A stretch of DNA of 64,000 bases, taken from contig CACKBQ010000003.1 of NCBI GenBank assembly GCA_902598405.1, positions 1 to 64,000 on the forward strand. The letters are read 5' to 3'. Positions 29,996 to 64,000 of the stretch are shown piece by piece. The translations under genes and the position numbers were made by a program. Below the pieces are notes generated by a model that had not been told where the DNA came from, did no database searches, and saw only the letters and a list, made by a program, of their open reading frames with translations. Every line of letters starts with the position of its first letter. Position 1 is the stretch's first letter. This DNA comes from an uncultured Pelagibacteraceae bacterium. Its GTDB lineage: Bacteria > Pseudomonadota > Alphaproteobacteria > Pelagibacterales > AG-422-B15.

Positions 29996-31003
29996 CTAGA
30001 TTTCAAAACTTTCGCCTATAGCCTCACAGCTTTTGGCCCACAGCATGCTCTTGACTTCAGGATTATCATAAAAAGACTCAAGTGAAAAAGATTTTGCTTT
30101 ACCTTTCATTCCTTTTAAACCAGGCCCTACCATTGAGCCTGAATTAATTTTAGGATCTGCAATACATCTTAGGAGACCCAAAGTTCCATCTTTTTCAGAC
30201 TGCCCAAACTTCATTAAATATTTTGTAAAAAAACTGCCCATTCCGCCATCCGCTACTGTTGTAGATTGTAAATCACTTTCTGCAAGACCCGGATGAGCAA
30301 CCATCGCTCTAATTTTTGAATTATTTTTTTGCAACTTTTCATGCAAACATGCAGTGAATGCAGCATTAGCAAGCTTTGTCTGGGCATAACGCTCCCATCG
30401 GCCACCACCAAACATCAAATTACCTCCATCTCCACCTAAGTTGCCACCTTTTTTTTCAAGAAACTTTTCTTTAAGTCTTTTTGTTTGAAAGCGTGCAATA
30501 CTAGAATGATTAACTATTCTTGCTTCATCCCTTAATTGTGATGCTTTTTCTAGTAAGGGCATACATAATTTAGTTAGAAGAAAATGGGACAAGTGATTAG
30601 TTTGCATTTGTACATCAAAGCCGTCGATTGTGGCTTTATCTTTAAGAGCCATTACGCCCGCATTATTGCATAATACATCAAGGCCATCGCTACATATTTC
30701 ATTAATTTTTGGAAATGCAGTTTTTACCGAGTCAAAACTTTGTAGATCACAATCCACTCTGTGAAAATTTCCATTTGCACAATTTTGTCTAAGTAAATTT
30801 AAAGATGACTCGGCTCTAGTCGAAGGACGATTCAATAGTAGGACTTTAGCACCAAGCTTAGCTACTGACTCAGCAGCATAAAATCCAAGCCCAGAAGTTG
30901 TGCCTGTTATAGCAACTGTTTTATTCTCCATTGAAGGTAGTGAGTTGAATAAATCATCAAAATACTTAGTATCGAGATTAGGTTTAGTATAAGAATTTTT
31001 CAT
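29996..31003 (-). CDS. Short-chain dehydrogenase/reductase (retinol dehydrogenase-like)
   Basis: Rossmann TGTTSGLGFYAAESVAKLGAKVLLLNR, NNAGVM, YAQTKLAN. Confidence 0.85.
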   Translation of the reverse strand: MKNSYTKPNLDTKYFDDLFNSLPSMENKTVAITGTTSGLGFYAAESVAKLGAKVLLLNRPSTRAESSLNLLRQNCANGNFHRVDCDLQSFDSVKTAFPKINEICSDGLDVLCNNAGVMALKDKATIDGFDVQMQTNHLSHFLLTKLCMPLLEKASQLRDEARIVNHSSIARFQTKRLKEKFLEKKGGNLGGDGGNLMFGGGRWERYAQTKLANAAFTACLHEKLQKNNSKIRAMVAHPGLAESDLQSTTVADGGMGSFFTKYLMKFGQSEKDGTLGLLRCIADPKINSGSMVGPGLKGMKGKAKSFSLESFYDNPEVKSMLWAKSCEAIGESFEI

Positions 31004-31053
31004 ATAATGAAATATTCTAGATTAAATACAACTAATGGCAATGTTTGAAAATT

Positions 31054-31287
31054 ATGAGAAAACTTGACCTTCATGGATTTACACTTGAGGATGCTTATCA
31101 AGAATTCACTGACTTTATTTACGAAGCTTACCAAGGAAGTATACCCAAAGTAGAGGTCATAACAGGTAAAAGTGGACAAATCAGAAAAGAATTTCCTCAT
31201 TGGGCAGAAAGCAGTCACCAAATACAGTACATTGAACAGAGTTGGCATGAAGGCAGTTTTGTTGTCAAAATCCAGAGGAAATATTGA
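31054..31287 (+). CDS. Stand-alone Smr-domain protein
   Basis: MRKLDLHGFTLEDAYQEFTDFI...VITGKSGQIRKEFPHW (LDLHG and TGxG of Smr). ATG at 31054 preferred over the tracked TTG at 31045. Confidence 0.8.
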   Translation: MRKLDLHGFTLEDAYQEFTDFIYEAYQGSIPKVEVITGKSGQIRKEFPHWAESSHQIQYIEQSWHEGSFVVKIQRKY

Positions 31288-31355
31288 AATCAAGCTCTGT
31301 CATTTTGGCAAACTTATTAGAGTTTAATTAGAAAGTTTTACACTTATATGTATAA

Positions 31356-31414
31356 CTCAATGGTGGGTACGTAATATTTTCATAAAATCCCCTAATCAAC
31401 TGCCCGCCATTGAG
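31356..31414 (+). ncRNA. Candidate structured RNA: 14-bp stem-loop in the long convergent gap
   Basis: CTCAATGGTGGGTA (31356-31369) pairs with TGCCCGCCATTGAG (31401-31414) with two U-G wobbles on the + strand; nested ATTTT-CAT-AAAAT in the loop. Confidence 0.35.
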
Positions 31415-31421
31415 ATTTATA

Positions 31422-31502
31422 GTGTTTAATTATTTTATCGTAGTTGCAATTTTTATTTCAGTTCTGCTGGTAAGTATACTTTTTGATTTTACAATAATTT
31501 AA
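31422..31502 (+). CDS. Possible small hydrophobic peptide (26 aa, GTG start)
   Basis: Own translation: MFNYFIVVAIFISVLLVSILFDFTII*; starts 8 nt after the stem-loop and ends right at the sdhB stop. No clear Shine-Dalgarno, so speculative. Confidence 0.2.
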   Translation: MFNYFIVVAIFISVLLVSILFDFTII

Positions 31503-32279
31503 TTACTGCTGTGCTATCATTTGTTTGATACCAGCAATAGCCTTTGCGGGGTTGAGACCTTTTGGACAAGCTTGAGTGCAATTCATTATTGTATGGCATC
31601 TATAAACTTTAAACGTATCATCTAATTCTTTTAATCTCTCTTTTCTTTCCTCATCACGGCTATCTTGTAACCAACGATATGACTGAAGCAGGACTGCAGG
31701 GCCCAAATATTTGTCACTGTTCCACCAATAACTTGGGCATGAAGTTGAGCAACATGCACACAAGATGCATTCATACAAGCCATCTAATTTTTCACGGTCA
31801 TTTCTTGATTGAATATTTTCAGTATCGTTTGCGTTTTGTTTCTTATTCATAAGCCATGGCTTGATGGACTTTAATTGCTTATAGAGTGTTTTTAAATTTG
31901 TAACCAAGTCTTTTATAACTGGCATGTGAGGCAGAGGATAAATTTTTATGTCACCTTTCACATCACTAATTGCTTTGGTACAAGCAAGTGTATTTGTCCC
32001 ATCAATATTCATTGCACAAGAACCACATATGCCCTCGCGACATGATCGTCTAAAGGTTAATGAAGTATCAATTTCACTTTTGATTTTCATAACTGCGTCC
32101 AATACCATCGGACCACAATCGTCTAGATCAACTTCATAAGTGTCCATCCTTGGGTTTTTCCCATCGTCGGGAGACCAACGGTAGATTTTGAATTTTTTAG
32201 TATTTCCATTGCTTTTTTCAGACTTGTAATAATCACCGTCTGTTAATTTAGAATTGTCGGGAAGATTAAACTGAACCAT
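31503..32279 (-). CDS. sdhB: Succinate dehydrogenase iron-sulfur subunit
   Basis: [37 protein letters not shown]. Confidence 0.98.
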
Positions 32280-34390: not shown

Positions 34391-34768
34391 TTAATATCCA
34401 ATCATAATTAAAAACCAAAATAGAACAGTGAGCAAAACAGTAAACAAAATTGTAATCCAACCTGTCAATTTGGCAGTATTTAATTCAAGCCCAATACCAA
34501 CGTCCCAGAATAAGTGCCTTAGGCAGTTTAAAAAATAAAACAAATATGAAAACGTAAGACCTATTAATATTGTTCTTATAAAAATATTTTCTGATAAGGA
34601 AATTATAAATTGAAAAGTTTCTTCGCCAGCGCTAATTGAATATAAATATATTATTAATATGATTACACCTAATGATGAAACTATGCCCGTTATTCTATGA
34701 AGAATTGATAGTATTGACGTAATTTGCCATCTATAAACTTGCAAATGTGGTGATAAGGGACTGCTCAT
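34391..34768 (-). CDS. sdhC: Succinate dehydrogenase cytochrome b556 subunit
   Basis: SPLSPHLQVYRWQITSILSILHRITGIV. Confidence 0.93.
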   Translation of the reverse strand: MSSPLSPHLQVYRWQITSILSILHRITGIVSSLGVIILIIYLYSISAGEETFQFIISLSENIFIRTILIGLTFSYLFYFLNCLRHLFWDVGIGLELNTAKLTGWITILFTVLLTVLFWFLIMIGY

Positions 34769-44716: not shown

Positions 44717-44812
44717 AGGTAGTGCACCAATGGGCGAAACTCGCTGACTGGTGTCGATACCTTTATTTATGGCACCGCAGAAATAATATTTCTGACGGAA
44801 AACGTGAGTTTT
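44717..44812. promoter_or_regulatory. Hairpin-dense ffh/dapF divergent leader (candidate cis-regulatory RNA and/or operator)
   Basis: Stacked stem 44717-44762 (AGGTA/TACCT, CACCA/TGGTG, GCGA/TCGC), 17-nt inverted repeat CAGAAATAATATTTCTG 44778-44794, hairpin AAAAC-GTGA-GTTTT 44799-44812. Confidence 0.35.
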
Positions 44813-63088: not shown

Positions 63089-64000
63089 TGGAATACAGAA
63101 AATTAGGTAGATCAGATATTGACGTAAGCTTGATATGCTTGGGCACAATGACCTGGGGAGAACAGAATACCGAGGCCGATGCTCACGATCAATTGGATTA
63201 TGCTCTAGATCATGAAGTTAATTTTATCGATACAGCTGAAATTTATGCTGTGCCAACTAAAGCTGAAACTCAGGGTTTAACAGAAAAATATATCGGTACT
63301 TGGTTCAAAACACGAGGCAACAGAGATAAGGTTGTTCTTGCAACTAAAGTTGCTGGTCGTTCTGGAATGTCGTGGCTTCGAGAAAATGAGGAAATACCTC
63401 GTTTGTCCAAAGAACATGTTTTCTATGCAGTTGAGCAAAGTCTTAAAAGACTACAAACAGATTACATTGATCTCTACCAAGTTCATTGGCCTGATAGACC
63501 TTTTGGTGCGTTTTCAGGAAGGCTTGAGTACAAACATATGGATACATCAGACTCCATACCTTTAGAGGAAACTCTTGAGGCTCTTGGTGAATTAGTTAAG
63601 CAAGGTAAAGTCAGGCAAATTGGTTTATCTAATGAAACGCCGTGGGGAACCATGAAATATTTAGAGCTTGCTGAAACTAAATCGCTACCGCGCGTGGCCT
63701 CAATTCAAAATGCTTATAATTTAGTCAATAGAGGTTTTGAAATTGGTTTATCAGAAGTGGCGATGCATGAACAAGTAGGCTTGCTTGCTTACTCGCCTTT
63801 GGCGCAAGGAACATTAACTGGAAAATATTTAGGTGGACAGATGCCTCAAGGTTCAAGACTTGCCCTGTTTGGAGACGGTCCTTTAATGATGAGATATAAA
63901 GGAGATAAGACACAGCAGGCAATTGAAATGTATGTAAATCTTGCAAAAAAATACGAAATTGACCCTGCTCAACTAGCTATTCAATTTTGTAATATTCAAC
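63088..64000 (+). CDS. Aldo/keto reductase (Tas-like), partial at the window end
   Basis: Own translation: MEYRKLGRSDIDVSLICLGTMTWGEQNTEADAHDQLDYALDHEVNFIDTAEIYAVP...DYIDLYQVHWPDRP...; start overlaps the previous stop (TAATG). Confidence 0.9.
   Translation, partial: MEYRKLGRSDIDVSLICLGTMTWGEQNTEADAHDQLDYALDHEVNFIDTAEIYAVPTKAETQGLTEKYIGTWFKTRGNRDKVVLATKVAGRSGMSWLRENEEIPRLSKEHVFYAVEQSLKRLQTDYIDLYQVHWPDRPFGAFSGRLEYKHMDTSDSIPLEETLEALGELVKQGKVRQIGLSNETPWGTMKYLELAETKSLPRVASIQNAYNLVNRGFEIGLSEVAMHEQVGLLAYSPLAQGTLTGKYLGGQMPQGSRLALFGDGPLMMRYKGDKTQQAIEMYVNLAKKYEIDPAQLAIQFCNIQ

What the first reader, a model, noticed from the sequence alone, without database searches (positions are those of the whole stretch)
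31288..31502. Outlier 215-bp gap between convergent Smr and sdhB carrying a structured element
The other convergent pairs in this window have essentially no spacer: rppH/atpC, 19810/lpdA and ftsY/pagL-like overlap, acnA/57137 are 6 bp apart, and DUF2794/BI-1 are 2 bp apart. Against that compaction, a 215-bp convergent gap probably holds a gene or RNA. It contains a 14-bp stem (31356-31369 with 31401-31414) whose two non-Watson-Crick positions are U-G on the + strand but would be A-C on the - strand, which points to a + strand RNA. A nested ATTTT/AAAAT hairpin lies in the loop, and TATATG (31345-31350) sits about where a -10 box would put transcription start at the stem base.
Basis: partly seen in the sequence, partly recalled or inferred. 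Interest (0 to 1): 0.6.

Follow-up and report, generated by a model that had tools for sequence, protein, structure and literature searches.

The report
Nitrogen-box RNA with tiny membrane protein
In a family of SAR11 ocean bacteria, the unusually wide gap next to the succinate dehydrogenase genes holds an unannotated nitrogen-regulon-type promoter, a conserved RNA hairpin and a 26-residue membrane protein, which together look like a previously undescribed regulator switched on when nitrogen is scarce.

Summary
The Smr/sdhB gap is syntenic across the SAR11 genus. It holds, all on the + strand: (1) a 13-bp inverted repeat, TGTCATTTTGGCA (31298-31310); (2) a TATA element exactly 47 nt from the start of that box in every congener; (3) a 14-bp hairpin with strong covariation whose ~30-nt loop shows four cytosines kept in all four genera; (4) an unannotated 26-codon ORF (31422-31502), a one-helix membrane microprotein under purifying selection whose stop abuts the sdhB stop, so the "gap" is really full. 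In six genomes, exact copies of the box outside coding sequence lie before amtB, glnK/glnB-glnA, a CP-ATP-grasp gene, an rpoH-type sigma gene and this element. It is therefore a nitrogen-regulon box, probably bound by NtrX: one NtrX-type protein was found per near-complete genome and no sigma-54. The hairpin persists in a 13-species clade (and G020) that lost the ORF, so the RNA has its own role. Best reading: a nitrogen-limitation-induced dual-function RNA (C-rich seed loop plus microprotein), like Vibrio VcdRP, restricted to this SAR11 family. No Rfam, Pfam or PDB match. Expression, NtrX binding and targets are untested. The nested ATTTT/AAAAT hairpin is not supported.

The parts
31298..31310 (.). 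inverted-repeat operator TGTCATTTTGGCA (consensus TGTCAWWTTGGCA); putative NtrX site
   Evidence: conserved in the gap of g1 and g8 species, degenerate in g7; exact copies elsewhere precede amtB, glnK/glnB-glnA, CP-ATPgrasp, rpoH-type genes
31345..31350 (+). -10-like element TATATG
   Evidence: TATA is exactly 47 nt from box start in all g1, 46 in g8, mostly 57 in g7
31356..31414 (+). structured RNA: 14-bp stem 31356-31369 / 31401-31414 around a 31-nt loop; predicted transcript starts near its base
   Evidence: covariation, strand bias of wobbles, covariance model R1 hit 79 bits
31388..31396 (+). conserved unpaired loop segment UCCCCUAAU; candidate base-pairing seed
   Evidence: CCCC is present in the loop of every sequence in g1, g7, g8 and g9, even where the stem sequence is wholly different
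31422..31502 (+). unannotated 26-codon ORF (GTG start) MFNYFIVVAIFISVLLVSILFDFTII, single-TM microprotein; stop abuts sdhB stop
   Evidence: homologous ORFs in three other genera; dN/dS about 0.08 in L017/L020, dN about 0.2 with saturated dS in g7

Best explanation
The gap encodes one + strand transcription unit, induced under nitrogen limitation by a regulator (most likely phosphorylated NtrX) that binds the TGTCAWWTTGGCA box about 47 nt upstream of the TATA element. The transcript starts at or just before the base of the hairpin. It acts in two ways: its C-rich loop (UCCCCUAAU) pairs with G-rich ribosome-binding regions of target mRNAs, and its 3' part is translated into a 23-26-residue single-helix inner-membrane microprotein that modulates a membrane complex or transporter. 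Shown by sequence comparison: synteny, box, TATA spacing, covarying hairpin, invariant CCCC loop, coding selection on the ORF, co-occurrence of the box with nitrogen-assimilation genes, and retention of the RNA after ORF loss. Inferred: transcription, NtrX binding, direction of regulation, base-pairing targets, protein partner.
For: Gap syntenic in 25/25 congeners examined, length 173-224; the RNA model finds one copy in each of the 32 g1 genomes where it hits, and the 11 g1 genomes without it lack the sdhB match (10) or have it cut at a contig edge (G018). Covariation: 26 cells changed on both sides against 8.4 in shuffles, 91.4% of cells paired against 27-55% in slid registers; the stem is replaced wholesale in g7 and g8 yet still pairs. 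12 G-U against 0 A-C in core columns. Box-CCCC pattern in 36 of 397 order genomes, 35 of them in the window's own family. Box: of 22 exact copies in six genomes, 4 lie inside the sdhC CDS and one at a contig edge (same sequence as the rpoH site); the other 17 are intergenic before amtB (4), glnK/glnB-glnA (4), CP-ATPgrasp (3), rpoH-type sigma (2) and this element (4). One sigma54-activator-family protein in each of five near-complete genomes, in the one inspected (G059) NtrX beside NtrY; no sigma-54. NtrX sites elsewhere are CAAN2-5TTG (PMC9223101); this box is CAAN1TTG-like. ORF: conserved microprotein in four genera. A 13-species clade plus G020 without the ORF keep hairpin and box.
Against: No transcript data. 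No intrinsic terminator was found, so the 3' end is unknown. No near-complementary translation-start region in the window's genome (nothing under 3 mismatches, hits not above control) and no convincing target among 63 window ORFs. In the window's own clade the ORF starts at GTG with only a weak SD (GAG). The box is not proven to bind NtrX, and CP-ATPgrasp and rpoH are not classic nitrogen genes.
Confidence: 0.6

Rival explanations
1. The hairpin is only a cis-acting 5' UTR element of the microprotein mRNA (translational control, mRNA stability or ligand sensing); there is no trans-acting RNA.
For: The hairpin lies directly between promoter and ORF in four genera; the C-rich loop could pair with an SD, with 4-bp matches in G095, g8 and G088 (by inspection).
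Against: Hairpin, box and loop persist in 13 related species and in G020 that have no ORF; loop-to-own-SD pairing is not conserved in the window's clade.
Confidence: 0.25
2. The transcript reads through into sdhB and acts as antisense RNA to the sdh operon, lowering succinate dehydrogenase when nitrogen is scarce.
For: Convergent layout with no spacer and no terminator found before sdhB.
Against: In G095 and G063 the module stays beside Smr but sdhB lies kilobases away, so adjacency to sdhB is not required.
Confidence: 0.08
3. Bidirectional transcription terminator or 3'-end stabilising stem shared by Smr and sdhB.
For: Stem-loop between two convergent genes.
Against: 31-nt loop, no U-tract, no terminator hit, conserved loop sequence, wobbles compatible with + only, promoter-like spacing.
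Confidence: 0.03
4. Type I toxin-antitoxin locus with a small hydrophobic toxin.
For: Small single-TM peptide with a structured leader.
Against: Single copy at a fixed site in streamlined genomes, shared box with amtB and glnK, no antisense antitoxin promoter identified, clean ORF loss with RNA retention.
Confidence: 0.03

Closest known systems
VcdRP dual-function sRNA of Vibrio cholerae (PMC8672173)
   Different: No sequence homology claimed; VcdP binds citrate synthase whereas this ORF is a membrane helix; CRP-repressed there, nitrogen-box promoter here; here the ORF is 3' of the seed, in VcdRP the seed is in the 3' part
Nitrogen-limitation sRNAs: NsiR4 of cyanobacteria (PMC9196836), GlnZ from glnA 3' UTR of Enterobacteriaceae (PMC9731577)
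   Same: Nitrogen-regulated small RNAs that tune nitrogen/carbon balance (abstracts)
   Different: Different phyla or classes, regulators and structures; GlnZ is a processed 3' UTR, this has its own promoter
'Cand. Pelagibacter ubique' structured RNA motifs (ffh, rhtB, pntA and other motifs; PMC2704228)
   Same: Short covarying hairpins in compact SAR11 intergenic regions
   Different: None lies at Smr/sdhB; the motif is absent from the 344 f2 genomes sampled apart from weak chance hits
NtrX sites CAAN2-5TTG of Brucella and Sinorhizobium (PMC9223101)
   Same: Palindrome with CAA/TTG half-sites, and NtrX is the candidate regulator
   Different: Spacer here is one base, with extra conserved TGT/GCA flanks; binding not tested

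Membership tests
Rfam families | match above gathering score | tested here: not met
   No hit over the gap at gathering scores; only chance hits at E up to 10
Structured RNA (any) | compensatory base changes across relatives | tested here: met
   wholesale stem replacement in g7/g8
Dual-function sRNA (VcdRP-like) | conserved single-stranded C-rich seed | tested here: met
   CCCC in the loop of all sequences
Dual-function sRNA (VcdRP-like) | translated small ORF on the same RNA | tested here: inconclusive
   ORF under purifying selection in four genera; co-transcription and translation not measured; lost in some species
Dual-function sRNA (VcdRP-like) | base-pairing regulation of trans mRNAs (Hfq-dependent) | not testable with these tools
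   No convincing target found by complementarity; needs experiment
Intrinsic terminator | GC stem, short loop, U-tract | tested here: not met
   one search found none in 30800-32000; loop 31 nt
Nitrogen (NtrX-type) regulon | operator shared with nitrogen-assimilation promoters | tested here: met
Nitrogen (NtrX-type) regulon | binding by NtrX and induction by nitrogen limitation | not testable with these tools
   NtrX-type protein present in five near-complete relatives, no sigma-54; needs EMSA and RNA-seq
Known small membrane proteins (Pfam/PDB) | profile match | tested here: not met
   no Pfam and no PDB match; power is low for 26 aa
Type I toxin-antitoxin | toxicity and antisense antitoxin | not tested

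The most novel reading that the evidence does not exclude
A nitrogen-starvation-induced, NtrX-controlled dual-function RNA, unique to one SAR11 family, in which a CCCC-loop sRNA and a 26-aa membrane microprotein together retune carbon/nitrogen flux, and in which the RNA function has outlived the protein in several lineages.
Probability: 0.4. Interest if true: 0.75.

Novelty: new member of a known kind. Interest (0 to 1): 0.62.

Why it matters
[quoted passage not shown] This locus offers a concrete, testable nitrogen regulon (box, NtrX, amtB, glnK-glnA), an RNA regulator inside it and a microprotein too short for gene callers. It also shows that outlier gaps in streamlined genomes can be used to find hidden genes.

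Tried and rejected
Nested ATTTT/AAAAT hairpin: no covariation. Rfam at gathering and permissive thresholds: nothing. Covariance-model hits in f2 genomes and in G063:C2 at 22-25 bits: inspected, coding or terminator sequence, chance. Minus-strand mini-ORF behind AGGGG inside the hairpin (MKILRTHH, MKKEYRVAHQ...): not conserved as protein, a by-product of the C-rich loop. Box copy at 34463-34475: inside the sdhC coding sequence, taken as coincidence of a conserved codon run. Perfect antisense target search in the own genome: only 3-mismatch hits, not above control. Duplex scan of 63 window ORFs: top hits are not at real start sites. Pho box: repeat spacing 8 instead of 11 (by inspection).

Full report
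WHAT WAS CHECKED. The Smr/sdhB gap is exactly 31288-31502. The + strand folds better than shuffles (z -3.29), the - strand does not (-0.58). Rfam gives nothing here.

CONSERVATION. The genome is a ~1.05-Mb draft of the SAR11 order; its nearest named records are uncultured Pelagibacteraceae single-cell genomes such as AG-895-F07 and AG-914-B16. Relatives carry tool labels: own family f1 with genera g1 (own), g7, g8, g9; f2 is the other SAR11 family. The Smr-gap-sdhB order holds in 25 of 25 congeners examined, with gap lengths 173-224. A covariance model of the hairpin finds one copy in each of 32 g1 genomes; of the 11 others, ten have no sdhB match and one (G018) is cut at a contig edge. It also hits G095 (g9). 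Weak hits in f2 are chance. In four f2 genomes the region downstream of sdhB runs straight into the aldehyde dehydrogenase gene, with no Smr or element.

STRUCTURE AND STRAND. Across 17 distinct hairpins 91.4% of cells pair, 7 pairs show double changes, and the covariation score (0.295) exceeds all 500 shuffles (mean 0.181) and all slid registers. Core columns hold 12 G-U and no A-C cells, so the RNA is read on +. In g7 (GAGCACTAA/TTAGTGCTC; in G060 GAGTGCTA pairing with TAGCACTC) and g8 (AAGCGGAAGA/TCTTCCGCTT) the stem sequence is entirely different yet still pairs, and the loop still carries CCCC. The loop, not the stem, is the conserved sequence...TCATNAANTCCCCTAATNAA... in g1.

A HIDDEN GENE. 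Downstream of the hairpin, 31422-31502 encodes GTG-started MFNYFIVVAIFISVLLVSILFDFTII, ending flush against the sdhB stop, so the compaction rule of the window is not broken. Homologues of 23-26 residues sit at the same place in g7, g8 and G095. Substitutions are mostly synonymous: dS 0.53 against dN 0.04 for L017/L020; dN about 0.2 with dS 1.8 or saturated among g7. No Pfam or PDB relatives, though power at this length is low. On an sdhB tree the ORF is absent from one well-supported clade of 13 species, from G020, and degenerate in two g7 genomes, while box and hairpin remain. Presence in outlying genera suggests these are losses; the tree needs four changes and does not by itself fix the direction.

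A NITROGEN BOX. The inverted repeat TGTCATTTTGGCA lies 10 nt after the Smr stop. Its start is exactly 47 nt from TATA in every g1 sequence, 46 in g8 and mostly 57 (one helical turn more) in g7, typical of an activator-promoter geometry. A scan of six genomes for TGTCAWWTTGGCA with up to one mismatch finds 7-16 copies per genome against 1-7 for the reversed control. The 22 exact copies: 4 inside sdhC coding sequence, 1 at a contig edge with the same sequence as the rpoH site, and 17 intergenic, before amtB (4), glnK-glnA or glnB-glnA (4), a circularly permuted ATP-grasp protein (3), an rpoH-type sigma factor (2) and this element (4) (families confirmed). A one-mismatch copy precedes a urea/amide-type binding protein gene. 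Five near-complete genomes encode exactly one sigma54-activator-family protein; the one inspected, in G059, sits beside an NtrY-type kinase and lacks the GAFTGA segment (the GAFTGA reading is mine). No sigma-54 was found. NtrX sites in other alphaproteobacteria are CAAN2-5TTG (PMC9223101), close to the CAA-N-TTG core of this box. NtrX as the binder is an inference.

HOW IT LIKELY WORKS. Under nitrogen limitation the box-bound regulator activates a transcript starting at the hairpin base (inferred). The exposed CCCC-containing loop is the natural seed for pairing with G-rich translation start regions. VcdR of Vibrio cholerae uses one conserved site with four consecutive cytosines, on an RNA that also encodes a 29-aa protein (PMC8672173). 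That is a resemblance in working, not evidence of kinship. The retained hairpin in ORF-less species argues for RNA function apart from the ORF; the selected ORF argues for a protein function where present. Targets and partner are unknown: no near-perfect target exists in the draft genome and the small duplex scan was uninformative.

DISTRIBUTION. The pattern box-N(55-85)-CCCC occurs in 36 of 397 order genomes, 35 of them in the window's own family and one chance match in f2. In G095 and G063 the module remains next to Smr while sdhB lies elsewhere, so the stable neighbour is Smr.

LIMITS. Everything rests on comparative sequence analysis; most genomes are incomplete single-cell or draft assemblies; there is no expression, binding or translation evidence; the 3' end of the transcript is unknown. 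The literature search covered only open-licence papers; the published SAR11 nitrogen-limitation study I know of was not held.

Noticed in passing
window 44717-44768, - strand: ffh sRNA motif (RF01793), a known Pelagibacter structured RNA, 44.6 bits.
   Followed up: no
L262, L244, L257, L263, L269, L243, L249, L264, L246, L248, L242, L253, L259, L261: TGTCAWWTTGGCA boxes before amtB, glnK/glnB-glnA, CP-ATPgrasp, rpoH-type and urea-binding-protein-like genes: a candidate NtrX regulon for this SAR11 family.
   Followed up: partly
L305:1081-2409: NtrX-type regulator apparently lacking the GAFTGA loop, in genomes without sigma-54.
   Followed up: partly
window 34463-34475: Exact box copy inside the sdhC coding sequence, conserved among congeners because the codons are; probably not an operator.
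   Followed up: partly
L127 and L130: In G095 and G063 other genes lie between the Smr-RNA module and sdhB, showing the module travels with Smr rather than with sdhB.
   Followed up: partly
L128, L130: Degenerate or truncated microprotein ORFs behind intact hairpins in two g7 genomes, possibly caught in the act of loss.
   Followed up: no
window 63566-63724: Another apparent 159-bp convergent gap, but it depends on a 77-aa ORF that may not be a gene.
   Followed up: no
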